Shown in pieces: positions 1,735-19,262 of a stretch of 64,000 nt of DNA. The notes under the pieces were generated by a model. That model was not told the DNA's origin. It was given only the letters and a program-made list of their open reading frames with translations, and ran no database searches. Source of the stretch: Mesonia profundi (lineage in GTDB: Bacteria; Bacteroidota; Bacteroidia; Flavobacteriales; Flavobacteriaceae); NCBI RefSeq assembly GCF_031085155.1, contig NZ_JAVHUL010000018.1:1-64000 (forward strand). Direction: 5' to 3'. Position 1 is the stretch's first letter; every line of letters starts with the position of its first letter. Made by a program: the position numbers and the translations under genes.

Positions 1735-2301
1735 ATGCATTTCGAAATTATACCTGCTCAAAAGGAACATGCCTTAGCTTCCGCGGAATTGATCTTGCAA
1801 GCGATGGAAGATTTAATTTATTTCTACATCGGGAAGGAAGACAAAGTAAAAGCAGTAGCTTTTTTACAACAACAATTTCTCATGGAAGAGAGTCTGTATA
1901 GCTATTCTAATACGCTAATTGCTATTTATGACAAAAAAATTGTAGGCGTGCTCATCGCTTATGATTCAAAGAAGCACCAAAGACTTCAGCAGAAATTAAA
2001 TCAATACCTTAAAGAAAATTATGCTTTTCATAATCGTTTAACTCCGGAAACGGAAGCTGAAGAGTTTTATTTGGATGCGCTGAGTGTAGATCCTACTTTT
2101 CGCGGACAAAAAATTGGAAGTCAACTTATACAGTTTGCCGAAAAACTAGCCCTAGAAAAGAAGCTTCCACACATAGGATTGCTAGTAGATGTAGAAAACC
2201 CAAAAGCCAAACGCTTATATGAGCGATTAGATTTTAAGGCCGTCAATAGCGTAAATTTAGGCAGACATGAATACGAGCATTTACAAAAGAAACTTTCCTA
2301 A
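1735..2301 (+). CDS. GNAT-family N-acetyltransferase
   Basis: A 188-residue cytosolic protein with a GNAT fold signature: a beta-strand followed by the acetyl-CoA pyrophosphate loop RGQKIGSQL (123-131), and the later VENPKAKRLYERLDF segment (153-167) typical of motif B. The acceptor substrate is not evident; candidates are a small amine or a ribosomal/protein N-terminus. Its stop codon and that of the convergent paaY share the four bases CTAA (2298-2301), so the two transcripts must overlap at their 3' ends. No transfer signs are visible. Confidence 0.88.
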   Translation: MHFEIIPAQKEHALASAELILQAMEDLIYFYIGKEDKVKAVAFLQQQFLMEESLYSYSNTLIAIYDKKIVGVLIAYDSKKHQRLQQKLNQYLKENYAFHNRLTPETEAEEFYLDALSVDPTFRGQKIGSQLIQFAEKLALEKKLPHIGLLVDVENPKAKRLYERLDFKAVNSVNLGRHEYEHLQKKLS

Positions 2302-2897
2302 TCGGTTTTTTTCATCTCTTGTAACGTCTTATAAAAATTTTCTTGTTCAGGTCGGTTTTGAGGAATTTCCCGTAAAGGTTCTACCTCTTCCAAGCTTTCG
2401 TGACAGTCTGATGGAAGTCGCTGATATAATTTAGTGCCAGCGGTTTTCCAAGCAATCATCTCGTCTGAAACTTCTTTAATTACTCTTGCAGGATTTCCGA
2501 CTACCAAACTCCGCTTCGGAATTTTGGTTTCGGCTTTAACAAAAGCCATTGCCCCAACAATAGATTCATCGCCAATCTCGGCATCGTCCATAATCACAGA
2601 ATTCATTCCGATAAGGCAATTTTCACCTAAGTTCGCGCCATGAATAATGGCTCCGTGGCCCACGTGAGCCCCTTTTTTTAAGGTGATACTCTTTCCTGGA
2701 AACATATGTACCGTACAATTCTCTTGAACGTTCACGCCGTCTTCCAAAATAATTTCACCCCAATCTCCGCGAATCGCAGCACCTGGACCAATATAACAGT
2801 CTTTCCCAATAATAACATTTCCCGTCACCGCCGCCAGGGGATGCACAAAACTACTTTCGTGAATTACGGGAATGTGGTCTTTGAATTTGTAGATCAT
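2298..2897 (-). CDS. paaY: PaaY-type hexapeptide-repeat protein (gamma-carbonic-anhydrase fold thioesterase)
   Basis: A 199-residue protein made of left-handed beta-helix hexapeptide repeats (VIIGKD, GAAIRG, NVQENC, AHVGHG, ANLGEN, AEIGDE across residues 17-125) with the metal-site histidines of the gamma-carbonic-anhydrase fold (CTVHMFPG and HVGHGAIIHG). Length and sequence match PaaY of phenylacetate clusters, which hydrolyses dead-end CoA thioesters such as 2-hydroxycyclohepta-1,4,6-triene-1-formyl-CoA. It is the last minus-strand gene of the paa cluster, separated from the enoyl-CoA hydratase gene by a four-helix-bundle cassette. The start at 2897 is preceded by the downstream arm (2917-2933) of the inverted repeat bounding that cassette. 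Confidence 0.88.
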   Translation of the reverse strand: MIYKFKDHIPVIHESSFVHPLAAVTGNVIIGKDCYIGPGAAIRGDWGEIILEDGVNVQENCTVHMFPGKSITLKKGAHVGHGAIIHGANLGENCLIGMNSVIMDDAEIGDESIVGAMAFVKAETKIPKRSLVVGNPARVIKEVSDEMIAWKTAGTKLYQRLPSDCHESLEEVEPLREIPQNRPEQENFYKTLQEMKKTD

Positions 2898-2916: not shown

Positions 2917-2933
2917 TAGAGGTGAGTGGTGAG
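2917..2933. repeat. Left arm of 17-bp inverted repeat around four-helix-bundle gene 1
   Basis: TAGAGGTGAGTGGTGAG is the exact reverse complement of bases 3345-3361. It ends on the base before the four-helix-bundle stop codon and lies 20 bases upstream of the paaY start codon. Confidence 0.9.
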
Positions 2934-3302
2934 TTATTTACTTTTTAAATGCTTTATTAAGGATGAAGTCATTTTAGAAATTTCGGTGATTTGCTTCCTA
3001 TTTTCTTCATCTTCGTTAAAAGTGATATAACCTCTAATTCTAGCTTTTGTTGAAATAGCAACGCATTCATGAGAACTATCCCAAGCCATTTTTAAATACC
3101 TAATAAAGTTGGCATCAGTGCTGGCCGATCCTTCAGCTATATTTAAGGCTATAGAGTCTGCTGCTCTAATAAATTGAGAAGATAATTTATAAATTTCGTG
3201 AGTTGGAAAATTCTCTACTTGACTATTAACTGACTCGCCAAATCCCATTGCTCTTTGATAAACTTTTAAATCCTCAAATCTGAAATGGTATTGACTCTTC
3301 AT
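2934..3302 (-). CDS. Four-helix-bundle protein 1 (S23/IVS family)
   Basis: A 122-residue all-helical protein with the family core LSSQFIRAADSIALNIAEG (residues 40-58), matching the four-helix-bundle family first found as ORFs inside intervening sequences of 23S rRNA and related to Avd of diversity-generating retroelements. The biochemical role of the family is unclear; pentameric RNA/DNA-binding bundles are known. The gene sits alone between the enoyl-CoA hydratase gene and paaY, bounded by a perfect 17-bp inverted repeat whose left arm touches its stop codon. It is more distant from the two other copies in the window than they are from each other. No transposase is nearby. Confidence 0.88.
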   Translation of the reverse strand: MKSQYHFRFEDLKVYQRAMGFGESVNSQVENFPTHEIYKLSSQFIRAADSIALNIAEGSASTDANFIRYLKMAWDSSHECVAISTKARIRGYITFNEDEENRKQITEISKMTSSLIKHLKSK

Positions 3303-3344
3303 ATCAAAAAATATTTTTCTTTAACTTTTTCTCACGTCTCATCT

Positions 3345-3361
3345 CTCACCACTCACCTCTA
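3345..3361. repeat. Right arm of 17-bp inverted repeat around four-helix-bundle gene 1
   Basis: CTCACCACTCACCTCTA, perfect reverse complement of 2917-2933. It begins 13 bases after the stop codon of the upstream enoyl-CoA hydratase gene (3375) and is 43 bases before the four-helix-bundle ATG. The adjacent bases 3331-3343 (GATGAGACGTGAG on the minus strand) recur at 30880-30892. Confidence 0.9.
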
Positions 3362-3374
3362 AATATCTCACCTC

Positions 3375-4130
3375 TTATTTAAACTTCTTAAGCTTCTCTT
3401 TGGTAAAAGAAGAAAGAACCAAGCGTCCACTAATTTTTGCACGCTCGTTAAGGAGTTGATCCCAATCTTCGGTGCCGCGCCAAAACATTTGTTTCATTTC
3501 TTTTACGGCTTCGGGATTGTACCCACATAGATTTTTTGCTAAAGCGGCAATGCCTTCATCCAATTCTTCCGTATTGTCATATACGTTAGCGTACAAGCCT
3601 TTTTGCATCGCCCATTCTGGTGAATAAAAGGAATTGGCATCAATAGCGATTTGTGACATTCCGCTCGCGCCTAATTTACGTTGCACTGCTGGTCCAACCA
3701 CAAAAGGTCCAATCCCCAGGTTTAATTCACTTAATTTGATAGATGCAAATTTAGTCGCCATACAATAATCCATAGCAGAAGCTAAACCTACTCCGCCCCC
3801 TACGGTTTTTCCTTGTATACGACCAATAATGAATTTAGGACACTTACGCATCGCATTAATCACATTAGCAAAGCCCATAAAGAACTTCTCGCCCACTACC
3901 TCATCTTGTATATTGATTAGCTCGGTAAAACTGGCTCCAGCACAAAAAGTACGGTCCCCACCAGATTTTAGAACAATCACCAACACTTCTTTATTTTGTC
4001 CCATTTCGGTAATCGTATCGGTCAGTTGTGCCAATATATTTCCTGGCAAGGAGTTATGCGCTGGATGAAAAAATTCTATCGTAGCAATCTTATCTTCTAT
4101 GTGTTTGTTAACGTATGCTTCTTCGCTCAT
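3375..4130 (-). CDS. Enoyl-CoA hydratase/isomerase family protein (PaaF candidate)
   Basis: A crotonase-fold protein of about 251 residues. The oxyanion-hole segments are visible (FCAGAS and TVGGGVGLA). The second catalytic glutamate position is filled (KLSELNLG), but the first, normally in GGGxE, is Gly (GGGVG). That makes a simple reversible hydratase less certain and leaves an isomerase or specialised hydratase possible. In the paa pathway a 2,3-dehydroadipyl-CoA hydratase (PaaF) is needed and no other candidate is in the window, so this is the best one by context. The frame is open further upstream to 4208, but that extension is a hydrophobic run with no family match, and the ATG at 4130 begins the homologous part. 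Confidence 0.75.
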   Translation of the reverse strand: MSEEAYVNKHIEDKIATIEFFHPAHNSLPGNILAQLTDTITEMGQNKEVLVIVLKSGGDRTFCAGASFTELINIQDEVVGEKFFMGFANVINAMRKCPKFIIGRIQGKTVGGGVGLASAMDYCMATKFASIKLSELNLGIGPFVVGPAVQRKLGASGMSQIAIDANSFYSPEWAMQKGLYANVYDNTEELDEGIAALAKNLCGYNPEAVKEMKQMFWRGTEDWDQLLNERAKISGRLVLSSFTKEKLKKFK

Positions 4131-4383
4131 AGTATTTTTGTTTTGTATCCAAAAATAATGAATGTAAGCTATAATGACAATTAAAACCCATTGAAATAAG
4201 AAAGGCATATTCCGATTTCATTCCTTTACGGATTACTTTCAGATCAAAAAAAACAAATAATCCTTTATACACGTTAAACTTTTTCAGCTCATAGCAGTCT
4301 TACTTAGCGGAAAGAGGTATCTTTATTCAGTAAAAACACTTCAGAATTCACATTTATTTTAATTAATTAACATCATTTATTCC

Positions 4384-6525
4384 ATGAAAAAATTACTTTT
4401 TTGTTTATTCTTGGCTACATTCATTCTACCGGTAAGGGCAAATGAAGGAATGTGGTTTTTAATGCATATTGAACGTTTAAACTACGTAGATATGCAAAAA
4501 ATGGGGCTTCAGTTAACGCCCGAGGAAATCTATAGCATCAACAACCACAGTCTAAAAGATGCGATTGTACAATTTGGCGGTGGCTGTACCGCAGAAATTA
4601 TTTCAGACAAAGGCTTGGTACTTACCAACCACCACTGTGGTTACGGTAATATCGCCGAACTTTCTACCGAAGAAAACGATTACCTCAACAATGGTTTTTG
4701 GGCGAAAAACTATGAAGAAGAACTTAAACCAGAAAATCTTTCGGTTCGGTTTTTTGTACGTATGGACGATGTTTCCAAGCGTATGTTAGCGCAAGTAAAC
4801 GATTCTATGAGCGAAGATGAGCGCGAGGCAGCTCTTAACCGTGAAATCGCTAAAATACAGGAAGAGAATAATGAAGACGGCAAATATACCGTTTCTGTAA
4901 AGTCTTTTTATAGCGGTAACGAATTTTACTATTTTGTATATGAAGATTATAACGACGTACGCTTAGTAGGAACGCCTCCTAAAGATATTGGGAAATTTGG
5001 TGGAGATACAGATAACTGGGAATGGCCACGTCATACCGGAGACTTTTCTTTGTTTAGAGTTTATGCCGATCAGGATGGAAATCCGGCTGAATATTCTGAA
5101 GACAATGTGCCTTTAAATCCTAAATATCATTTACCAACGAGCATTAGAGGTTTTGAGGAAAATGATTTTGCTATGATTTTGGGTTACCCCGGAAGAACTA
5201 ACCGATGGATGCCTGCTGGCGGAATTGAGCAAAATGTAGAGTACGCTTATCCTGCTTGGGTAGAAGCTTCAAAAGCATCGATGGATGTGATGAAGAAATA
5301 TATGGATGAAAAGCCACAAGTGAATTTAGATTATGCTTCTAGTTATGCCGGAATTGCCAATTATTGGAAAAACAGACAAGGAATGATTGATGCGTTAAAG
5401 CAGCATAAAACGGCTAAAAGCAAACGCAAAGAAGAGAAGAAATTCCAACGATGGGCCAAGAAGCAGAAAACTGATAAGTATAAAAACGTGATGCCTGTTA
5501 TTAACGAGTATTACAGCAAAACCAACAAGAGCAGCGAGCACGACAACTATTTGATGCTGATGCTTAGAACGCGATTAGCTACGCTACCTTATCGCTTAGG
5601 AAAAACCACGGAGTATTACATTGATCAAAATGAAGCCAAGCAAGCAGAGGTGCTTCCTAAATTGGAGAAAGAAATCAATAATTTATATGATGGCCTTTAT
5701 CTTCCTTTAGAAAAAGAAGTATTAGCTACGCAGTTAAAGTTGTATTCCGACAAGGCCGATAATATTGCTCCTAAAGTAAAAGCAATTGCCGATGAAAATA
5801 ACAATAGTCAAGAAGCTTGGCAAACCTATATCGATCAAGCCGTAGAGAATAGTATCTTTAAATCTGAAGAATCTTTTACCGCATTTTTGAACAATCCTGA
5901 TATGGAGGTGCTTAAGAATGATCCTTTATATGTGCTTTCTACAGATTTATTAACGCGTTACAGAGCAAAGTCTGACGAAGAAAAAGAATGGGAAGACAAG
6001 TATCAAAAAGCTTTCCGATTGATGATTCAAGGAATGCGCAAGCAAAATCCTGATGAAAAGTATTACCCAGATGCGAACAGCACCTTGCGTTTGACTTACG
6101 GAAAAATCATTTCGCTTCCTAAAGATCCTAGCAATGATGCGAAGAAAAACTATTATACAACCTTAAAAGGAACCATCGCAAAATACCAACCGGGCGATGA
6201 GGAATTTAATATGCCTAAAAAGCTAGTTGATTTGTATGAAAGCAGAGATTTTGGTCAATATGCCGACAAAGACGGCTATTTACCAGTCAACTTTTTAACC
6301 GATAATGACATTACCGGTGGAAACTCTGGTTCTCCTGTTCTAAACGGAAAAGGAGAATTGATTGGATTGGCCTTTGATGGAAACATTGAAGCCATGGCCG
6401 GCGATGTTATTTTTGATGATAAATTACAACGTACCATTAGCGTTGACATCAGATACGTATTGTTTTTAATCGACAAATATGCCGGAGCCACACATCTTAT
6501 TGATGAATTGACTTTAGTGAAGTAA
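4384..6525 (+). CDS. dpp7: S46-family dipeptidyl peptidase, DPP7-like
   Basis: A 713-residue secreted or periplasmic serine peptidase with a signal peptide (1-19, ending VRA). Catalytic residues can be placed at H84 (TNHHCGY), D220 (HTGDF, tentative) and S648 (GGNSGSP). S46 enzymes release dipeptides from peptide N-termini and supply Bacteroidota with dipeptides. The residue 18 positions after the catalytic Ser is Gly (FDGN). In P. gingivalis DPP11 this position is Arg, giving Asp/Glu specificity, whereas DPP7 has Gly and prefers bulky hydrophobic P1 residues, so DPP7-like specificity is inferred. It is a single plus-strand gene interrupting the minus-strand paa cluster, ending at a very long hairpin. 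Confidence 0.93.
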   Translation: MKKLLFCLFLATFILPVRANEGMWFLMHIERLNYVDMQKMGLQLTPEEIYSINNHSLKDAIVQFGGGCTAEIISDKGLVLTNHHCGYGNIAELSTEENDYLNNGFWAKNYEEELKPENLSVRFFVRMDDVSKRMLAQVNDSMSEDEREAALNREIAKIQEENNEDGKYTVSVKSFYSGNEFYYFVYEDYNDVRLVGTPPKDIGKFGGDTDNWEWPRHTGDFSLFRVYADQDGNPAEYSEDNVPLNPKYHLPTSIRGFEENDFAMILGYPGRTNRWMPAGGIEQNVEYAYPAWVEASKASMDVMKKYMDEKPQVNLDYASSYAGIANYWKNRQGMIDALKQHKTAKSKRKEEKKFQRWAKKQKTDKYKNVMPVINEYYSKTNKSSEHDNYLMLMLRTRLATLPYRLGKTTEYYIDQNEAKQAEVLPKLEKEINNLYDGLYLPLEKEVLATQLKLYSDKADNIAPKVKAIADENNNSQEAWQTYIDQAVENSIFKSEESFTAFLNNPDMEVLKNDPLYVLSTDLLTRYRAKSDEEKEWEDKYQKAFRLMIQGMRKQNPDEKYYPDANSTLRLTYGKIISLPKDPSNDAKKNYYTTLKGTIAKYQPGDEEFNMPKKLVDLYESRDFGQYADKDGYLPVNFLTDNDITGGNSGSPVLNGKGELIGLAFDGNIEAMAGDVIFDDKLQRTISVDIRYVLFLIDKYAGATHLIDELTLVK

Positions 6526-6545: not shown

Positions 6546-6620
6546 AAAGCCGTCTAATTGAGGAAATTTGTAATCCTGAAACAAGTTCAGGATTACAAAT
6601 TTCCTCAATTAGACGGCTTT
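6546..6620. terminator. Perfect 35-bp hairpin, bidirectional terminator between dpp7 and paaZ
   Basis: Bases 6546-6580 and 6586-6620 are perfect reverse complements (35 bp) around a 5-base loop (acaag). The outer ends are AAAGCC/GGCTTT, giving a U-tract in both directions, and the two flanking genes converge. The stem is two to three times longer than a usual intrinsic terminator. Confidence 0.92.
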
Positions 6621-13346: not shown

Positions 13347-14516
13347 TTAGAAGTTGAAATTGGTATTCTCTTTCTCCATCTTTCTTAAAAGCGGACTACA
13401 GCGATAGCGATCTTCATGGTATTCTTCATATAAAGCATCCATCTGATTAACGCACCAATCGATTCCTTTTTCATTGGCCCACGTAAGTAAGCCTTTGGGA
13501 TAATTCACGCCTTTCGTCATCGCAAGATCTATATCTTTTGCGGTAGCAATATTTAAAAATAAAGCATCTGCCGCTTCGTTGATTAACATTACCAAGATGC
13601 GGTCTAGAATTTTTTCCCCATTGTCATCATTGAAGGACCCCTCGACTCCGCTCGGGGTGACAGGTTTGCCATCTTTATAGTTGTAAAAACCTTTTCCTGT
13701 TTTTCTACCTAGGTAACCGGCTTCAGAGAGACGTTTTTGAGTAAAGGAAGGTTTGTAACGCGGATCGTAATAAAATTCTTTAAAAACAGTTTCGGTAACG
13801 GTGTAATTTACGTCGTTTCCAATAAAGTCCATTAATTCAAAAGGGCCCATTCTAAAACCACCCAACTCTTTCATAGCGCGGTCAATCTCTGCAAAACTGG
13901 CTTTGCCTTCTTCATAAATTCGTAGTGCTTCTCCGTAGAAAGGTCGGGCTACTCGGTTGACAATAAAGCCCGGAGTGTCTTTAGCCAAAACACCAACTTT
14001 TTTCCAGTCGGCTATAATTTTTACCATTTTCTCTTGAACTTCCTTAGAAGTTTGAATGGCCGGAATAATTTCTACCAAAGGCATCAATGGTGCTGGATTG
14101 AAGAAATGAATTCCGATTACGCGTTCTGGATTCTCTAAAGAAGCGGCAATAGAAGCGATAGAAAGCGAAGAGGTATTCGAAGCGATAATTGCATCTTTAG
14201 CCTGATAGCTTTCTAGTTCTTGAAAAACTTTGCGCTTAATCTCTAAGTTTTCTACAATAGCCTCAATGGTTAAATTGGCTGTTGCTAAATCTTTTAAGGC
14301 ACCAACATAAGAGATATTTCCTTGAATTCTGCTTTTTTCAGTTTCATCAATTCTTCCCTTCTCAATTAAACGCGCTAACACTTTTTCTAGTTTAGCTTTA
14401 CTTTTATCTAGGGCCGTTTGTTGGGTATCATAAAGCATCACCTTGCATCCTGCGGTTGCCGCAACTTGTGCGATGCCACTTCCCATGGTTCCTGCTCCTA
14501 TTATTCCTACTTTCAT
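13347..14516 (-). CDS. paaH: PaaH: 3-hydroxyadipyl-CoA dehydrogenase, with in-frame repeat insertion
   Basis: A 389-residue NAD-dependent 3-hydroxyacyl-CoA dehydrogenase. The Rossmann motif GAGTMGSGIAQ (6-16), the catalytic-region HFFNPAPLMPLVEII (142-156) and a long C-terminal helical domain are present. It oxidises 3-hydroxyadipyl-CoA to 3-oxoadipyl-CoA. Residues about 286-295 read VTPSGVEGSF, which is the translation of a common Bacteroidota palindrome (13631-13662) rather than family sequence, and they fall in a loop between the two helical parts. Its start codon is only 5 bases from the downstream arm of the second four-helix-bundle cassette. Confidence 0.92.
   Translation of the reverse strand: MKVGIIGAGTMGSGIAQVAATAGCKVMLYDTQQTALDKSKAKLEKVLARLIEKGRIDETEKSRIQGNISYVGALKDLATANLTIEAIVENLEIKRKVFQELESYQAKDAIIASNTSSLSIASIAASLENPERVIGIHFFNPAPLMPLVEIIPAIQTSKEVQEKMVKIIADWKKVGVLAKDTPGFIVNRVARPFYGEALRIYEEGKASFAEIDRAMKELGGFRMGPFELMDFIGNDVNYTVTETVFKEFYYDPRYKPSFTQKRLSEAGYLGRKTGKGFYNYKDGKPVTPSGVEGSFNDDNGEKILDRILVMLINEAADALFLNIATAKDIDLAMTKGVNYPKGLLTWANEKGIDWCVNQMDALYEEYHEDRYRCSPLLRKMEKENTNFNF
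13631..13662 (-). repeat. Dispersed palindromic element inserted in frame in paaH
   Basis: On the minus strand the element runs TGTCACCCCGAGCGGAGTC then GAGGGGTCCTTCA, with ACCCC/GGGGT arms. It is a repeat type widespread between genes in Bacteroidota genomes; here it keeps the paaH frame open and encodes VTPSGVEGSF. Confidence 0.8.
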
Positions 14517-14521
14517 ATGTT

Positions 14522-14532
14522 GATTAACGATT
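14522..14532. repeat. Left arm bounding four-helix-bundle gene 2
   Basis: GATTAACGATT, the reverse complement of 15018-15028; similarity continues imperfectly on the inner side (TATTTGATTG against ATTGATTGG). It lies 5 bases upstream of the paaH start codon. Confidence 0.7.
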
Positions 14533-14566
14533 TATTTGATTGTCGATTAACGATTTTTGATTTTTC

Positions 14567-14932
14567 TTATTTGAAATTGAGTTTTGCTGTTGATGTTCTT
14601 ATGCCAACTACAAATATGGAAATTAGCTCATTATTCTCATTGAGAAGTCTATCCAACTTCGTGAAGTCTGAGCTTAGTTTTGTTCCTTTTTGAATTTTTA
14701 GATTTATTAAGCTTTCTCTTAGTTCTTTTAAACAGATTTTCATTTTATGCAGAAAATCCCGTGTTGATTCTGCGCTTCTTGCTTCGCCATAATTTAGTGC
14801 TGAAGAACTTGCTGACCTAATTAGTTGTTTTGTTAAATGATCTCCAGCAAAAGATTTTTCGACGGTTTTACAGAAAAGAATGGTGTCGATTGCAAATTGG
14901 ATAAGTCGATTTTCTAATTCAACAGGTTTCAT
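14567..14932 (-). CDS. Four-helix-bundle protein 2 (S23/IVS family)
   Basis: A 121-residue all-helical protein with the family core LTKQLIRSASSSALNYGEA (about 33-51) and KICLKELRESLINLKIQ (about 67-83). It is closely related to four-helix-bundle protein 3 (17838-18188), sharing KQLIRS-SSALNYGE and LKELRESL-NL-IQ. The gene fills the gap between paaG and paaH, bounded by inverted arms at 14522-14532 and 15018-15028. No function can be assigned from sequence. Confidence 0.85.
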   Translation of the reverse strand: MKPVELENRLIQFAIDTILFCKTVEKSFAGDHLTKQLIRSASSSALNYGEARSAESTRDFLHKMKICLKELRESLINLKIQKGTKLSSDFTKLDRLLNENNELISIFVVGIRTSTAKLNFK

Positions 14933-15017
14933 AATAAGAGTTTTTTGACGAAATTACAAGTTAAGATTTTTTTCAGTCAAAAATTTTTAATCCCAAATCA
15001 AAAAATCTCCAATCAAT

Positions 15018-15028
15018 AATCGTTAATC
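15018..15028. repeat. Right arm bounding four-helix-bundle gene 2
   Basis: AATCGTTAATC, complementary to 14522-14532; its outer base is the last base of the paaG stop codon. The adjoining CAAAAAATCTCCAATC (14999-15014) recurs with one base less at 16447-16461 in the paaC-paaD gap. Confidence 0.7.
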
Positions 15029-15810
15029 TATTCTCCCTTAAACTCTGGTTTTCTTTTCTCCATAAAAGCAGTTACGCCTTCCTTGTAGTCTTTTGAGGAA
15101 GCAGCTTCTATTTGAAATTTGCTTTCTAAAGCCAATTGTTCGTCTAGATTATTGCTAAGCGATTGATTCAATGCTTCCTTGGTTAACGCCAAAGCTTTGG
15201 TAGGCATTTTGGCCATTTTTAAAGCAAGTTTTTCGGCTTCATCTGCAAAGGTATCCGCAGGAAAGTACTTATAAATCATCCCTAAACGTTCCGCTTCTTG
15301 CGCATCTACTTTATCACCTAACATGGCTAAAGCCGAAGCTTTTTGAAAACCAATTAATCGTGGTAAGAAAAAAGTTCCAGCCGAATCTGGCACCAAGCCT
15401 ATTTTACTAAACGCCTGAATAAAAGCAGCGCTTTCTGAAGCTACCACCACATCACAAGCTAAGGCAATATTGGCTCCGGCTCCTGCCGCCACACCATTTA
15501 CCGCTGCAATTACTGGTTTTGCCGTTTCGCGAATTAACTGAATAATGGGGTTGTAATGTTCTTCAAGAATTGCTTTAAAACCCGGATTAAGATCGGGATC
15601 GGTTACTTCTTTTAAATCTTGTCCGGCACAAAAAGCTTTTCCGTTTCCGGTTAACAAAATAGCTCGAACCTCTTTATTCTTAGCCGCGTCTTTTAAAGCG
15701 TCTTGCAGCTCAAAAGCCATCTCTCTGTTAAAACTATTAAATACTTCAGGTCGGTTTAAGCTCAATTTAACCACCTGGTTTTTGATTTCTACTTGTATAT
15801 TTTTATTCAT
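15028..15810 (-). CDS. paaG: PaaG: 1,2-epoxyphenylacetyl-CoA isomerase
   Basis: A crotonase-fold enzyme of about 260 residues. Oxyanion segments FCAGQDLKE and VAAGAGANIALACD are present, and the acidic residue typical of PaaG lies in KIGLVPDSAGTFFLPRLIG. It converts ring-1,2-epoxyphenylacetyl-CoA to oxepin-CoA. The open frame extends upstream to 15879, but that part (KLKSKKNKVSISFSTSTSTS) is a translation of simple-repeat DNA, so the ATG at 15810 is chosen. A local hairpin (15825-15882) fills the gap to paaD. Confidence 0.92.
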   Translation of the reverse strand: MNKNIQVEIKNQVVKLSLNRPEVFNSFNREMAFELQDALKDAAKNKEVRAILLTGNGKAFCAGQDLKEVTDPDLNPGFKAILEEHYNPIIQLIRETAKPVIAAVNGVAAGAGANIALACDVVVASESAAFIQAFSKIGLVPDSAGTFFLPRLIGFQKASALAMLGDKVDAQEAERLGMIYKYFPADTFADEAEKLALKMAKMPTKALALTKEALNQSLSNNLDEQLALESKFQIEAASSKDYKEGVTAFMEKRKPEFKGE

Positions 15811-15824
15811 ATTTTTTGAAGTTG

Positions 15825-15882
15825 AAGTTGAAGTTGAAAAGGAAATTGAAACCTTATTCTTTTTCGATTTCAACTTCAATTT
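15825..15882. repeat. Arms without a gene between paaD and paaG (empty-cassette-like hairpin)
   Basis: Bases 15825-15845 (AAGTTGAAGTTGAAAAGGAAA) and 15862-15882 (TTTCGATTTCAACTTCAATTT) are complementary at 18 of 21 positions around a 16-base loop. The outer edges lie 9 bases after the paaD stop and 14 bases before the paaG start, the same geometry as the gaps that hold four-helix-bundle genes. The left arm continues as a GTTGAA hexamer run. Confidence 0.75.
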
Positions 15883-15891
15883 CGATTTATA

Positions 15892-16392
15892 TTAGATTAA
15901 ACATTTAAAATAATCGAAGGGTTCTTGGCAGTCATCACATTTAAATAAAGCTTTACAAGCGGTAGAACCAAACTGACTTACCAAATGGGTTTGTGTAGAA
16001 CCACACTGCGGACATTTAACCAATTTTTCTTCTCCCAACAAAGCTCTTTTATCTGCGGAAGCATCCATAGGTGGTGCAATTCCATAATCTTCTAAGGCTT
16101 TTCTACCTGTTTCTGTAATCCAGTCGGTGCTCCAGGCTGGCGCGAGAATTAAATCAACTTTTGCTTCATATCCAGCTTGCGTCAAAGCCGTCACGATATC
16201 ATCTCCTATCACATCCATCGCAGGACAACCGCTATACGTAGGTGTTATTTTTACACTCGCTTTTTTGCCGTCTAACCTAGCTTCGCGAACCACACCTAAA
16301 TCTAAAATAGAAAGCACAGGAATCTCAGGATCTGGAATTTTCCTTAAGATGGGCTCTAATTCTTTCTCGATATGTACTTTTTCTTCCGTCAT
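15892..16392 (-). CDS. paaD: PaaD: phenylacetyl-CoA epoxidase accessory protein
   Basis: A 166-residue cytosolic protein. Residues 1-110 are a MIP18/DUF59-type domain (IPDPEIPVLSILDLGVV, then YSGCPAMDVI). The C-terminus has a four-cysteine metal site (KCPQCG ... FKCDDCQEPF). PaaD proteins help mature or load the metal/Fe-S centres of the PaaABCE epoxidase. It follows paaC after a 72-base gap containing a short hairpin and has the length expected for the family. Confidence 0.92.
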   Translation of the reverse strand: MTEEKVHIEKELEPILRKIPDPEIPVLSILDLGVVREARLDGKKASVKITPTYSGCPAMDVIGDDIVTALTQAGYEAKVDLILAPAWSTDWITETGRKALEDYGIAPPMDASADKRALLGEEKLVKCPQCGSTQTHLVSQFGSTACKALFKCDDCQEPFDYFKCLI

Positions 16393-16410
16393 AAAAATTA
16401 AGGCTTTGGT

Positions 16411-16453
16411 ATTTTTGATTTCAATCTAAAATCTTCCGTCTTCATTCAAAAAT
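16411..16453. repeat. Short complementary arms in the paaC-paaD gap
   Basis: ATTTTTGA (16411-16418) is complementary to TCAAAAAT (16446-16453), 11 bases after the paaC stop and 18 bases before the paaD start. Its right flank AAAAATCTCCAATC repeats the sequence at the paaG stop. It may be another geneless version of the cassette arms; with only 8 A/T-rich pairs chance is possible. Confidence 0.4.
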
Positions 16454-16464
16454 CTCCAATCTAA

Positions 16465-17244
16465 TTACCATTTAGCGCCAGGATAAGCACGTTGCATATA
16501 TTGCATTTCGCTTAAAATAAAGCCCATATGTTCGCTATGGATTCCTTTTTTTCCTCCTTTTTGAAAATATTTTAACTCGGGAACATCCAAAGTGGCTTCT
16601 TCTAAAATTTCCGATACATTCTTATAATACGTATCTTTTAGTTGCTTTACATCTACTCCTATTCCAGCTTTAATCATCGCTTCATCAGCTTCTGTAGTGT
16701 GGAATAATTCATCTGTAAATCGCCACAAATCATTGATAGCGGTTTGCATTTTCTCTTTACTCTCTTCGGTACCATCACCTAAACGTTTCACCCAATCTGA
16801 TGAGAACCGCTTATGATAATTCACCTCTTTAATGCTTTTTTTAGCAATAGCGACCAAGGTGTCGTCTTTAGATTTTTGCAGTTCGGTCATTAAAAGAATA
16901 TGGAAATGATCAAACAAAAATTGTCTACCAATGCTAAAAGCAAAATCGGTGTTGGGTTGTTCTACTAAAAGCACGTTTAAATATTCCCGCTCGGTTCTTA
17001 GAAAAGCCAAATCATCTTCGGTAACTTCTCCATCTGAAATTTGTGCCGCATACTGAAAATAACTACGCACCTGTCCAAATAAATCCAAGGAGATATTGGT
17101 TAACGCAATATCGGTTTCTAAGGTAGGTCCGTGACCGGTTAATTCTCCTAGCCGCTGACCTAATATTAAGCTATTATCGGCAATGCCGTAGATATATTTT
17201 ATCTTATCTCCGTGTAAACGGATATTTTCTTGTTTTGAACTCAT
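16465..17244 (-). CDS. paaC: PaaC: phenylacetyl-CoA epoxidase structural subunit
   Basis: A 259-residue ferritin-like helical protein. The N-terminal part (YIYGIADNSLILGQRLGELTGHGP, then LTNISLDLFGQVRSY) and the later YHKRFSSDWVKRLGDGTEESKEKM match PaaC. PaaC is the non-catalytic partner that forms the stable heterodimer with PaaA in the multicomponent epoxidase. It is preceded by a 246-base gap after paaB that contains a REP-like palindrome and a TTCCGCGGAA motif. Confidence 0.94.
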   Translation of the reverse strand: MSSKQENIRLHGDKIKYIYGIADNSLILGQRLGELTGHGPTLETDIALTNISLDLFGQVRSYFQYAAQISDGEVTEDDLAFLRTEREYLNVLLVEQPNTDFAFSIGRQFLFDHFHILLMTELQKSKDDTLVAIAKKSIKEVNYHKRFSSDWVKRLGDGTEESKEKMQTAINDLWRFTDELFHTTEADEAMIKAGIGVDVKQLKDTYYKNVSEILEEATLDVPELKYFQKGGKKGIHSEHMGFILSEMQYMQRAYPGAKW

Positions 17245-17470
17245 GGTATTTATTATTTATTCAAAAATCTTTTTGTTTTATCACTGAAGTCTAAATTCCT
17301 CCAATTATGATTTCATATACAAGATGAAATTCAACTGACAGAAATTTGATTGATTTACGCTTCCGCGGAAATTCATGCCGTCTTAAGGTTACTGGATAGA
17401 CCAAAATTCACGATGACATAATGAAGTTACTGCCTATGTAGGTAAAAAAATAAAATTATTAAGCGATTAG

Positions 17471-17490
17471 ATTCCTGCCTGCGCAGGAAT
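17471..17490. repeat. REP-like palindrome ATTCCTGCC-TGCGCAGGAAT
   Basis: Identical to 10154-10173 and directly abutting the paaB stop codon (17491-17493). A degenerate relative lies at 17429-17443 (actgcctatgtaggt). Confidence 0.85.
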
Positions 17491-17790
17491 TTACATATGT
17501 TTTACCTCATCTGGCAATTCGTAAAATGTAGGATGACGGTACACTTTATCTGCTGCCGGCTCAAACATTTCTCCGTTGTGTTCTGGATTAGAAGCCGTAA
17601 TATTAATCGATTCTACCACCCAAATACTCACGCCTTCACTTCTTCTCGTATAGACATCACGGGCATTTTCTAGAGCCATATCTGCATCTGCAGCGTGGAG
17701 ACTTCCAAAGTGACGATGCTCGAGTCCGTTTTTACTACGAACGAATATTTCCCATAAGGGCCAGTTCTTTGTTTTCTTATCTGTTGACAT
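17491..17790 (-). CDS. paaB: PaaB: phenylacetyl-CoA epoxidase small subunit
   Basis: A protein of about 99 residues matching PaaB throughout (NWPLWEIFVRSKNGLEHRHFGSLHAADADMALENARDVYTRR, written here only as a landmark for residues 8-49: key parts WEIFVR, HFGSLHA, ARDVYTRR). PaaB bridges PaaAC dimers in the epoxidase complex. The frame is open up to 17841, but those residues are translated from cassette-arm DNA and the conserved part begins at the ATG at 17790. The downstream cassette arm (17807-17826) lies 16 bases before this start. Confidence 0.92.
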   Translation of the reverse strand: MSTDKKTKNWPLWEIFVRSKNGLEHRHFGSLHAADADMALENARDVYTRRSEGVSIWVVESINITASNPEHNGEMFEPAADKVYRHPTFYELPDEVKHM

Positions 17791-17806
17791 ATTTTTTTGT
17801 TTAAAA

Positions 17807-17826
17807 AAATCGAATTCTAAGTTGAA
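17807..17826. repeat. Left arm bounding four-helix-bundle gene 3
   Basis: AAATCGAATTCTAAGTTGAA is complementary to 18274-18293 at 17 of 20 positions. It lies 16 bases upstream of the paaB start codon and 11 bases past the four-helix-bundle stop. Confidence 0.65.
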
Positions 17827-17837
17827 TTTGATTTTCT

Positions 17838-18188
17838 TCAATTAATATTTTTAATTCTTGTAACTATAATCCGAATTAATTGATCATTTTCATCCTTGAA
17901 AACGTTTAAGCTATCAATAGGCATTAATTTTGCCTTGGTTTGAATATTCAAATTTCTTAAACTCTCTCTTAATTCTTTTAAGACAATTCTTAATTTATTG
18001 ATTTTATCCTTTTCTGTACCCGCCCCAAGTACTTCTCCGTAATTTAAGGCTGATGAACAAGAAGAACGAATAAGTTGCTTTGCAAGGTAATCTCCAGCAT
18101 AACTCATAGGTTTTTGATCATAAACTAATATTATGCTTGCTGCAAAATCTTCTAATCGATCAGTTAAATCAAACCTTTTTTCATTCAT
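17838..18188 (-). CDS. Four-helix-bundle protein 3 (S23/IVS family)
   Basis: A 116-residue helical protein with LAKQLIRSSCSSALNYGEV (about 36-54) and LRIVLKELRESLRNLNIQ (about 67-84), a close paralogue of the copy at 14567-14932. It occupies the gap between paaA and paaB, two subunit genes that are normally adjacent, and is bounded by inverted arms. Function unknown. Confidence 0.85.
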   Translation of the reverse strand: MNEKRFDLTDRLEDFAASIILVYDQKPMSYAGDYLAKQLIRSSCSSALNYGEVLGAGTEKDKINKLRIVLKELRESLRNLNIQTKAKLMPIDSLNVFKDENDQLIRIIVTRIKNIN

Positions 18189-18273
18189 TCTACCTAAAGT
18201 TGCAGTTCTATCATGAATATTTGAATGGAATTTAAGTTCAGTTCCAGTTTCATTTTACAATCATCTTTTCGAT

Positions 18274-18293
18274 TTCAGCTTCAAATTCGATTT
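18274..18293. repeat. Right arm bounding four-helix-bundle gene 3
   Basis: TTCAGCTTCAAATTCGATTT, complementary to 17807-17826 (17/20), starting 12 bases after the paaA stop codon. The surrounding sequence is a degenerate GAAATTGAAATCGAA-type repeat related to the arms at 15825-15882. Confidence 0.65.
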
Positions 18294-18305
18294 CAATTTC
18301 ATTGC

Positions 18306-19262
18306 TTACCCCGCTTTCCTTACTTTTTTATCCGCTTGTTTTTCGGCGTAAGCCATAGCGGCATCACGCACCCATTCTCCGCCTTCCCATGCGCTTACGC
18401 GGGTTTGCATACGTTCTTTATTGCAAGGACCGTGACCTTTTACGACTTGCCAAAACTCATCCCAATCGATTGCACCAAAGTCATAATGACCAGTTTCTTC
18501 ATTCCATTTTAAATCTTTATCTGGTACGGTAATGCCTAGAATATCGGCCTGTGGAACCGTTTGATCTATAAACTGCTGACGTAATTCGTCGTTGGTTTTA
18601 CGTTTCAATTTCCATTTCATGGACTGCTCGGTATGGGTAGAAGCATCATCTGTAGGCCCTAACATCATTAAAGACGGCCACCACCAGCGATCTAATGCAT
18701 CTTGAGCCATAGCTTTTTGCTCTGGTGTCCCATTACATAATGTGAGCATAATTTCATAGCCTTGACGTTGGTGAAAACTTTCTTCCTTACAAACACGCAC
18801 CATAGCACGGGCATACGGCCCAAATGAAGTGCTACACAACGGCACTTGGTTGATAATTGCAGCTCCATCTACGAGCCAGCCAATCGCACCAATATCTGCC
18901 CAAGTAATGGTTGGATAGTTAAAAATACTAGAGTATTTCGCTTTTCCGGAATGCAATTGATTGTACATCTCCTCTCTGGAAATTCCCAAAGTTTCGGTGG
19001 CGCTGTAAAGGTACAGTCCATGACCTGCTTCATCTTGCACTTTCGCCAATAAAGCCACTTTGCGACGCAAAGAAGGCGCTCGGGTAATCCAATTTCCTTC
19101 TGGCAACATCCCTACAATTTCTGAATGGGCGTGTTGCGACATTTGCCGGATGTGCGTTTTACGGTACTTCTCTGGCATCCAATCTTTAGGTTCTATTTTT
19201 TCATCTCGGGCTATCTTAGCCTCGAATATATCTTCTAAATTTTTAATTTCTTTATCACTCAT
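18306..19262 (-). CDS. paaA: PaaA: phenylacetyl-CoA epoxidase catalytic subunit
   Basis: A 318-residue ferritin-like di-iron protein. Helices bearing the metal ligands include [18 protein letters not shown] and [15 protein letters not shown] (E and ExxH motifs), and the C-terminal [19 protein letters not shown] is characteristic of PaaA. It inserts one oxygen atom into the aromatic ring of phenylacetyl-CoA using electrons from PaaE. It follows paaE by 67 bases. Length is normal for the family. Confidence 0.95.

What the first reader, a model, noticed from the sequence alone, without database searches (positions are those of the whole stretch)
14517..18305. Intervening-sequence-like cassettes in the mRNA of the paa operon: three four-helix-bundle genes, each looped between complementary arms
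Seen: three genes of the four-helix-bundle family (2934-3302, 14567-14932, 17838-18188) each lie alone in a gap between paa genes. In each case an arm sits next to the upstream stop codon (13, 0 and 12 bases away) and its complement sits 20, 5 and 16 bases before the downstream start codon (paaY, paaH, paaB). Known: this protein family was first described as ORFs inside intervening sequences of 23S rRNA, whose ends pair into a stem cut by RNase III. Inference: the same kind of element has moved into an mRNA operon; pairing of the arms would loop out the ORF and bring stop and next start together, and it places a stem at the ribosome-binding region, which could control PaaB, PaaH and PaaY. I know of no description of such elements in protein-coding operons.
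Basis: partly seen in the sequence, partly recalled or inferred. Interest (0 to 1): 0.9.

Follow-up and report, generated by a model that had tools for sequence, protein, structure and literature searches.

The report
Intervening-sequence cassettes in operon mRNAs
Small helical-protein genes that sit between genes of bacterial operons are often framed by matching arms built of seven-base repeats, the same build found here around a relative inside a ribosomal RNA gene, which suggests that one little-studied kind of mobile element inhabits both ribosomal and messenger RNAs.

Summary
Each of the three PF05635 (four-helix-bundle, FHB) genes lies alone in a paa gap between complementary arms; the third pair is weak.

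The pattern is general. Of 207 distinct FHB proteins, mostly from this Bacteroidota family, 198 are encoded between co-directional genes and none antisense to both neighbours. In 157 usable cases own arms pair far better than arms swapped between elements (24.9 vs 14.1; best of 10,000 permutations 15.7).

New here: the arms are degenerate 7-base repeats (lag-7 identity 0.45-0.47, baseline ~0.30), G-rich 5' and C-rich 3'. The repeat word follows the FHB clade, also at unrelated gaps, so arms and ORF behave as one unit. Orthologous gaps are filled or empty by species; ORF-less heptad hairpins occur too.

Many cyanobacterial FHB genes have such arms. So does an FHB ORF inside an Azospirillum 23S rRNA gene: a true rRNA intervening sequence (IVS) built alike (one example).

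An IVS-type element in mRNA is thus well supported as kinship and anatomy. RNase III excision and translational control are untested. Pair-by-pair compensation among close homologues was not seen, which speaks against a finely kept regulatory stem. A resident reverse transcriptase is not required.

The parts
3375..4208 (-). enoyl-CoA hydratase-like gene upstream of cassette 1
   Evidence: PF00378 E 2.3e-30
3345..3361 (-). 5' arm of cassette 1 (TAGAGGTGAGTGGTGAG); similar words run on at about 3330-3374 by eye
   Evidence: sequence; perfect 17-nt complement of the 3' arm, score 34; 0 of 312 swapped pairings as high; paired in MFE
2934..3302 (-). FHB gene 1 (23S_rRNA_IVP family), 122 aa
   Evidence: PF05635 E 1.4e-24, TIGR02436 5.8e-24; PDB 2gsc E 3.1e-8
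2917..2933 (-). 3' arm of cassette 1 (CTCACCACTCACCTCTA), directly after the FHB stop, 19 nt before the PaaY-like start
2298..2897 (-). PaaY-like hexapeptide protein downstream of cassette 1
   Evidence: TIGR02287 E 3e-69, below its curated cut-off
15028..15879 (-). paaG-like gene upstream of cassette 2
   Evidence: TIGR02280 E 5.1e-95, below its curated cut-off
14977..15027 (-). 5' arm of cassette 2, GATT-type heptad words; local alignment covers 14977-15016, the predicted fold extends it to the paaG stop
   Evidence: sequence; score 34; 2 of 312 swapped pairings as high; MFE
14567..14932 (-). FHB gene 2, 121 aa, divergent branch
   Evidence: PF05635 E 4.8e-10, TIGR02436 6.5e-19
14520..14560 (-). 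3' arm of cassette 2 (TCAAAAATCGTTAATCGACAATC...), 3 nt before the paaH start
13347..14516 (-). paaH-like gene downstream of cassette 2
   Evidence: PF02737 E 7.7e-61
18306..19262 (-). paaA upstream of cassette 3
   Evidence: TIGR02156 over cut-off
18274..18293 (-). 5' arm of cassette 3 (AAATCGAATTTGAAGCTGAA), weak
   Evidence: sequence; score 25; 6 of 314 swapped pairings as high; MFE
17838..18188 (-). FHB gene 3, 116 aa, divergent branch
   Evidence: PF05635 E 1.9e-8, TIGR02436 4.4e-17
17807..17826 (-). 3' arm of cassette 3 (TTCAACTTAGAATTCGATTT), 16 nt before the paaB start
17491..17790 (-). paaB downstream of cassette 3
   Evidence: TIGR02157 over cut-off

Best explanation
Each cassette is a copy of a small mobile element of the rRNA intervening-sequence type. 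A basic four-helix-bundle (S23p/Avd-like) ORF sits in the loop of a stem whose arms are degenerate 7-base repeats, G-rich at the 5' side and C-rich at the 3' side. In Bacteroidota it occupies transcribed inter-gene gaps in the sense direction, as a related element does in a 23S rRNA gene.

Shown by sequence: arms, heptad period, polarity, sense orientation in the Bacteroidota sample, presence/absence at orthologous gaps, inheritance of arms and ORF as a unit, purifying selection on the ORF, ORF-less heptad hairpins, and the same build in one 23S rRNA gene.

Inferred: in the transcript the arms pair, loop the ORF out and bring stop and next start close together. Cleavage of the stem (RNase III, as for rRNA IVS) would release the cassette or at least make it tolerable in an operon. 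The FHB protein recognises the heptads of its own element and serves spread or maintenance of the element.
For: Own vs swapped arms 24.9 vs 14.1, best of 10,000 permutations 15.67, 88 of 157 above the 95% point of swapped arms. Lag-7/14/21 identity 0.45/0.43/0.39 (5' flank) and 0.47/0.42/0.40 (3' flank) against 0.28-0.35 at other lags; other small genes give 0.35/0.33/0.31 on the 5' side. 198 of 207 between two co-directional genes, 0 antisense to both. Elements at different gaps share arm words in 23 of 6051 pairs at FHB identity under 0.35, rising to 13 of 66 at 0.6-0.7 and 8 of 12 at 0.7-0.8 (1 of 3 above). FHB in 19 of 80 named paa loci, over eight gaps of the operon; the same gaps are a few bases or overlapping elsewhere by my ORF calls. 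An FHB remnant between kept arms (L129; the PF05635 match with stops at G001:C3:94957-95151 starts in that gap). 34 of 723 FHB-free co-directional gaps hold ORF-less heptad hairpins, 0 of 171 divergent or convergent gaps, 0 of 2682 simple shuffles (Fisher p 0.0012). Median dN/dS 0.09 (101 of 123 pairs with finite dS) and median pI 8.9, n 187. 23S rRNA IVS L278: arm score 47 (best of 5000 shuffles 26), lag-7 0.61/0.63, Rfam 23S, PF05635 E 3.3e-33. 17 cyanobacterial plasmid FHBs: own 31.1 vs swapped 17.4, 0 of 20,000 permutations.
Against: No excess of pair-by-pair compensation among close homologues. 69 of 157 elements do not exceed the 95% point of swapped arms; 8 of 17 cyanobacterial ones do not. 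Of these 17, 13 lie between co-directional genes, 2 have one such neighbour (L269, L283) and 2 are antisense to both (L273, L280), so sense orientation is not absolute there. Cassette 3 folds only slightly better than shuffles. Control small genes show a smaller but real own-over-swapped excess (16.8 vs 14.5, z 9.5, n 176). The gap label needs 36 changes on the FHB tree for 28 gaps (minimum 27), so movement is rare compared with descent; the tree is poorly resolved. No target duplication or precise empty site was defined. No transcript data. The rRNA comparison rests on one gene, whose arms were picked by eye before the test.
Confidence: 0.68

Rival explanations
1. The arms are regulatory stems kept by the host: pairing of stop- and start-side arms controls translation of PaaB, PaaH and PaaY, and the FHB protein is the regulator that binds them.
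For: 3' arms end a median 12 nt before the next start and 5' arms begin a median 8 nt after the stop (82 well-paired elements). FHB under strong purifying selection and basic. Arms form the outer stem in silico.
Against: Occupancy of the same gap changes between species of one genus. Single substitutions in arms usually break pairs and compensation is not enriched. The same build occurs in CRISPR and suf-type operons, on conjugative plasmids and in a 23S rRNA gene, with no common target function.
Confidence: 0.12
2. DNA-level mobile element: the inverted heptad arms are ends of a MITE-like transposon moved in trans by a host transposase; the RNA stem is incidental and sense orientation is left by selection for ORF expression.
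For: Inverted ends with a fixed polarity, ORF-less short forms, arms and ORF as a unit. Two of 17 cyanobacterial plasmid FHBs are antisense to both neighbours (L273, L280).
Against: 0 of 207 FHB genes antisense to both neighbours in the Bacteroidota sample. Occurrence inside a 23S rRNA gene and ORF-less hairpins only in co-directional gaps in this sample. Different clades have unrelated words, so no shared end sequence. Transposase genes were not searched for, and target duplications were not examined base by base.
Confidence: 0.14
3. Retro-element: FHB acts like Avd of diversity-generating retroelements, with a reverse transcriptase supplied by the host copying the looped RNA into new sites.
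For: PF05635 resembles Avd (stated in PMC10053308, passages read). Sense orientation and RNA targets.
Against: RVT_1 is found in 42 of 149 family genomes while FHB is in 118 of 149. Reading both lists, 13 of the 25 genomes with 8 or more FHB matches have no RVT_1 match, so a resident reverse transcriptase of that family is not needed for persistence. Genomes are drafts and other RT models were not searched.
Confidence: 0.04
4. Chance: AT-rich gaps with simple repeats give inverted matches, and FHB genes are ordinary operon members.
For: Control small genes also show an own-over-swapped excess (16.8 vs 14.5, z 9.5, n 176), perhaps because solo hairpins lie in their gaps (inference).
Against: Permutation results for FHB elements; heptad hairpins absent from 2682 simple shuffles.
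Confidence: 0.02

Closest known systems
23S rRNA intervening sequences (IVS) with an S23p ORF (Coxiella, Leptospira, Brucella; PMC4990558, abstract and introduction read)
   Same: Same ORF family; bordered by complementary sequences; sporadic distribution; ORF decay. The one rRNA example examined here (Azospirillum L278) has the same heptad arms and polarity.
   Different: Cassettes lie between protein-coding genes of operons, not in rRNA. Excision by RNase III is known for rRNA IVS and untested here. Heptad structure of IVS arms was not mentioned in the parts read.
Heptameric GGGAATC inverted repeats in Xanthomonas and GGGGA(T/C)T in Nostoc (Rehm 2015, PMC4692102, passages read); TAACTGA repeats (MacGregor 2015, PMC4679880, abstract, sections 3 and 10 read)
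   Same: 7-base repeats in gaps; in X. campestris 70 cases are two convergent sites close together, i.e. G-rich 5' and C-rich 3' arms. In Nostoc 7120 they found only a few such pairs.
   Different: Described as repeats only; no S23/four-helix ORF link in what I read (0 occurrences of 'S23' in the main text of PMC4692102). X. campestris also holds the solved S23p XCC0516, but its flanks could not be fetched.
tRNA-Leu intron P6b of Nostoc (PMC3488679, passages read)
   Same: Degenerate heptanucleotide repeats that base-pair into a hairpin.
   Different: Part of a tRNA intron; no ORF mentioned in the passages.
Avd accessory proteins of diversity-generating retroelements
   Same: Related four-helix-bundle protein (PMC10053308, passages).
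   Different: The only RVT_1 match of the window's genome is a sub-cut-off fragment on another contig; 13 of 25 FHB-rich genomes have none. Template and variable repeats were not searched for.

Membership tests
23S rRNA intervening sequence (IVS) | ORF of the S23p / 23S_rRNA_IVP family (in the ORF-bearing kind) | tested here: met
   PF05635 and TIGR02436 over cut-off for all three
23S rRNA intervening sequence (IVS) | Complementary terminal arms that can form a stem | tested here: met
   for the window (cassette 3 weak); for the set
23S rRNA intervening sequence (IVS) | Located inside an rRNA gene | tested here: not met
   All three lie between paa-type protein genes; no rRNA match in window 1-24000
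23S rRNA intervening sequence (IVS) | Excised from the transcript by RNase III without religation | not testable with these tools
   No RNA data held
23S rRNA intervening sequence (IVS) | Sporadic presence among relatives | tested here: met
   Genus gaps filled/present: paaA-B 4 of 16, paaG-H 8 of 15, hydratase-paaY 4 of 13 plus one remnant
Heptad-repeat inverted arms (property of the rRNA IVS L278 and of cyanobacterial FHB loci) | Lag-7 periodicity and G-rich 5' / C-rich 3' polarity | tested here: met
   for the set as a whole; not tested for each window cassette alone
Diversity-generating retroelement (Avd) | Reverse transcriptase near the Avd gene | tested here: not met
   Only RVT_1 match in G000 is a sub-cut-off fragment on contig C8; the window is on C10
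Diversity-generating retroelement (Avd) | Template and variable repeats | not tested
   No search made
Regulatory RNA leader known to Rfam | Match to a family at gathering score | tested here: not met
   Only two matches, both below gathering score and not at the cassettes, in window 1-24000

The most novel reading that the evidence does not exclude
One family of FHB elements links four orphan phenomena: rRNA intervening sequences, four-helix-bundle genes scattered in operons (including those flagged as CRISPR-linked), intercistronic heptad hairpins, and the heptanucleotide repeats of Cyanobacteria, Xanthomonas and others. The FHB pentamer reads or generates a 7-base register specific to its clade, and the element spreads through transcribed RNA sites.
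Probability: 0.35. Interest if true: 0.92.

Novelty: new variant of a known kind. Interest (0 to 1): 0.82.

Why it matters
S23p/IVP proteins are stated to have no known function (PMC4990558, introduction), and the papers I read on heptamer repeats in cyanobacteria, Xanthomonas and Beggiatoaceae offer no settled origin for them. If the two are ORF and arms of one element, both become testable: the protein has a candidate substrate (its own heptads), the repeats have a candidate agent, and operon annotation changes, since FHB genes inside cas, suf, paa or plasmid operons would be passengers and not pathway members. It would also give mRNA operons a class of ORF-bearing insertions with a built-in way of being tolerated.

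Tried and rejected
Compensatory base changes as proof of a maintained stem: tested twice, not found among close homologues. Arm polarity as evidence for insertion strand: dropped, because a pair of inverted arms reads the same from both strands; only the ORF direction is informative. RNAduplex energies over whole flanks were noisy and were replaced by local alignment scores. Retro-mobility by a resident reverse transcriptase: not required. Rfam match at the cassettes: none.

Earlier description: ten paper searches in the open-licence PMC set. Among the papers listed (searches list only 20 of 209 and 15 of 85) and the passages read, none joins S23/four-helix genes with heptad repeats or describes such elements between protein genes. 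Subscription papers (e.g. Mazel 1990, Costa 2002, Elhai 2008, all recalled) could not be searched, so priority is not settled.

Rows dropped before counts: 9 FHB ORFs at the edge of a fetched stretch (the same kind was dropped, uncounted); duplicates with identical protein; 50 of 207 elements whose gaps were outside 15-220/10-220 nt or not co-directional on both sides. Window cassette 3 is not among the 157, because a longer paaB ORF with a TTG start was called; it was scored apart. 29 of the 207 come from the named paa loci, one of them (L038) labelled Saprospiraceae. Of 41 to 46 plasmid records with FHB matches, 22 stretches were fetched, 20 aligned and 17 cyanobacterial ones counted; L285 and L286 were left out because their matches are partial, L274, L277 and L278 because they are not cyanobacterial. 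L281 and L282 are near-copies. In one search L278 was scored with a wrong ORF start and one search replaces that value. The 30 family loci fetched automatically are the best-scoring ones, which favours the canonical branch.

Full report
What is there. [quoted passage not shown] All reach the curated cut-offs of PF05635 (23S_rRNA_IVP) and TIGR02436; the closest solved structure to the first is 2gsc, XCC0516, a protein of Xanthomonas campestris. Each gap carries one arm after the upstream stop and its complement before the downstream start. Own-arm scores are 34, 34 and 25; one arm paired with arms of other elements scores as high in 0 of 312, 2 of 312 and 6 of 314 cases. With wider flanks (62 elements) the 95% and 99% points of swapped arms are 25.0 and 34.2, so the third pair only touches the 95% point there. 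As RNA, all three cassettes fold with the arms as outer stem, clearly better than shuffles for the first two and not for the third (z -3.36, -3.24, -1.07).

How general it is. The genome has 10 PF05635 matches, 9 over the cut-off; 15 of 16 genus genomes have some, 118 of 149 genomes of the family do, and 0 of 14 control genomes do. From 207 FHB genes with distinct proteins (genus, family and, for 29 of them, named paa loci), 198 sit between two co-directional genes, 9 have one such neighbour, none is antisense to both; in a first sample of 147 the figure was 140, against 430 of 643 other small ORFs. In 157 elements with measurable gaps, own arms score 24.9 and swapped ones 14.1; no permutation of 10,000 came above 15.67; 88 of 157 exceed the 95% point. 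Other small genes of the same loci show a smaller excess (16.8 vs 14.5, z 9.5, n 176).

What the arms are. They are degenerate heptanucleotide repeats. Identity at lags 7, 14 and 21 is 0.45, 0.43, 0.39 on the 5' side and 0.47, 0.42, 0.40 on the 3' side; other lags lie at 0.28-0.35; control small genes reach 0.35, 0.33, 0.31 on the 5' side. Words differ between elements: GATTAAC/GATTTTT, GAGGTGA, TTAGGTA, GTATACT, GACTTAT. The 5' flank has more G than C in 141 of 157, the 3' flank more C than G in 114 of 157; both hold in 107, the reverse in 6. Because inverted arms read the same from either strand, this polarity marks the element but not the strand of insertion.

Arms and ORF are a unit. At the same gap, elements whose FHB proteins are under 60% identical have arms that pair within the element and not across (35 disjoint pairs, 24.7 vs 16.4, own higher in 31, p 1e-6). 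At different gaps, related FHB proteins carry the same word: 23 of 6051 pairs share it at under 35% identity, 46 of 4555 at 35-50%, 27 of 661 at 50-60%, 13 of 66 at 60-70%, 8 of 12 at 70-80%, 1 of 3 above. 9 of 28 multi-element gaps hold FHB clades under 45% identical. On a poorly resolved tree of 176 proteins the gap label needs 36 changes where 27 is the minimum, so most copies descend with their gap and a minority have moved.

Filled and empty. In 80 named paa loci, some cut by contig ends, FHB genes occur in 19, over eight different gaps (paaA-B, B-C, C-D, D-G, G-H, H-I, I-J, hydratase-paaY; the last letters are my labels for window genes 12457 and 10173), while the same gaps are a few bases or overlapping elsewhere by my ORF calls; L016 has a further short fragment. 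Inside the genus the paaA-B gap is filled in 4 of 16, paaG-H in 8 of 15 (in the 16th, G013, an FHB at this gap lies on another contig, L152) and hydratase-paaY in 4 of 13 (one of them, L120, shortened), with one further genome, L129, showing an FHB remnant between kept arms (the match with stop codons starts in that gap). In two genomes (L130, L131) arms of the paaA-B type seen in relatives enclose, by eye, a REP-like palindrome where relatives have the ORF.

ORF-less forms. Of 723 FHB-free gaps between co-directional genes 34 contain a heptad hairpin without ORF; 0 of 112 divergent and 0 of 59 convergent gaps do, and 0 of 2682 simply shuffled gaps (p 0.0012). In 30 of these 34 the 5' arm is richer in G, in 3 richer in C, one is tied; for 62 non-heptad inverted repeats it is 24, 25 and 13. 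The gaps come from loci chosen around operons, so the divergent and convergent sample is small. Whether these hairpins are remnants, non-autonomous copies or targets is not decided.

Beyond Bacteroidota. Of 17 cyanobacterial plasmid FHB genes counted, 13 lie between co-directional genes (among them cas6-FHB-cas4 twice and cmr2-FHB-cmr3), 2 have one such neighbour (L269, L283) and 2 are antisense to both (L273, L280). Many have the same kind of arm, e.g. GGGAACAGGGAACAG / CTGTTCCCTGTTCCC in L268. Own arms give 31.1 and swapped ones 17.4 (0 of 20,000 permutations), 9 of 17 above the 95% point, lag-7 0.45 and 0.42. Most important, the FHB ORF of Azospirillum lipoferum plasmid AZO_p2 (L278) lies inside a 23S rRNA gene (RF02541, 2422 bits). 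Its arms TCAGAGGACGGATGACAGAGGACGGAGGACAGAAAG and CTATCCGTCCTCTGTCTTCTGTCATCCGTCTTCTGA score 47 (best of 5000 simple shuffles 26) with lag-7 0.61 and 0.63 (1 of 5000 shuffles each); the arms were picked by eye first. So an rRNA intervening sequence and the operon cassettes share both the ORF family and the heptad arms. This rests on one rRNA example.

Function. The FHB gene is under purifying selection (median dN/dS 0.09 in 101 of 123 overlapping pairs with finite dS; median dS 1.28, near saturation) and basic (median pI 8.9, n 187). Arms are close to the codons (median 8 nt after the stop, 12 nt before the start, arm 25 nt; 82 elements). Among close homologues I found no excess of compensatory change: 43 pairs, 25.3 vs 24.5, p 0.29; single changes 210 break and 29 keep a pair, double changes 21 keep and 19 break. 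The share of changed columns with both sides changed is 0.143, above slides of 1-3 columns (0.06-0.09) but not above slides of 7 (0.13-0.17). I therefore favour arms that arrive matched and then drift. A resident reverse transcriptase is not needed: RVT_1 in 42 of 149 genomes, and 13 of the 25 genomes with 8 or more FHB matches have none (read together).

What is known. Warrier 2016 (PMC4990558, abstract and introduction read) describes the Coxiella IVS as a selfish 23S element with an S23p ORF, complementary borders and RNase III excision, and names S23p ORFs in Leptospira and Brucella IVSs. Rehm 2015 (PMC4692102, passages read) reports GGGAATC heptamers in Xanthomonas, with 70 convergent pairs in X. 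campestris, and few pairs in Nostoc. MacGregor 2015 (PMC4679880, abstract, sections 3 and 10) reports TAACTGA heptamers in Beggiatoaceae, Cyanobacteria and five Bacteroidetes, with possible translational roles. PMC3488679 (passages) describes heptad hairpins in the Nostoc tRNA-Leu intron. PMC10053308 (passages) notes that PF05635 resembles Avd. PMC10910872 (one legend passage) names 23S rRNA IVP in a figure on CRISPR association; the cas-operon insertions seen here suggest passengers. None of these, in what I read, links FHB genes with heptad arms. Paper searches used; only open-licence PMC texts are covered and long listings were cut.

Verdict. The cassettes work, as far as sequence tells, like rRNA intervening sequences placed in mRNA; they are not filed as rRNA IVS because the defining location is not met. 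New variant of a known kind, with a shared hallmark (heptad arms) for which I found no earlier description and which also offers an origin for heptanucleotide repeats.

Noticed in passing
L131:11728-12051 and L132:12226-12549 (hydratase-paaY gap): A GIY-YIG domain ORF (PF01541 E 2.4e-19 for L131) fills the same gap that FHB cassettes use in relatives, flanked by TTCCTGCGCAGGCAGGAATC-type palindromes.
   Followed up: partly
L130 and L131 paaA-paaB gap; L069 paaC-paaD gap: By eye, REP-like palindromes sit in the loop between heptad arms, as if the loop were a landing place for different inserts.
   Followed up: no
L266, L267, L275 (cyanobacterial plasmids): FHB genes lie inside cas and cmr operons (cas6-cas4, cmr2-cmr3), which may explain why IVP genes have been named among CRISPR-associated genes.
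   Followed up: partly
window 6551-6615: Hairpin-like stretch matching on both strands between genes ending at 6525 (+) and 6642 (-); Rfam mir-84 match below gathering score, probably a bidirectional terminator.
   Followed up: no
L274 (Riemerella plasmid record) and L001 (window genome): An FHB gene follows an iron-sulfur assembly gene in both; in L001 it lies between PF01521 and SufBD genes, with different heptad words.
   Followed up: partly
L273 and L280 (cyanobacterial plasmids): FHB genes antisense to both annotated neighbours, unlike the 207 Bacteroidota ones; their arms are weak (18) or moderate (30).
   Followed up: no
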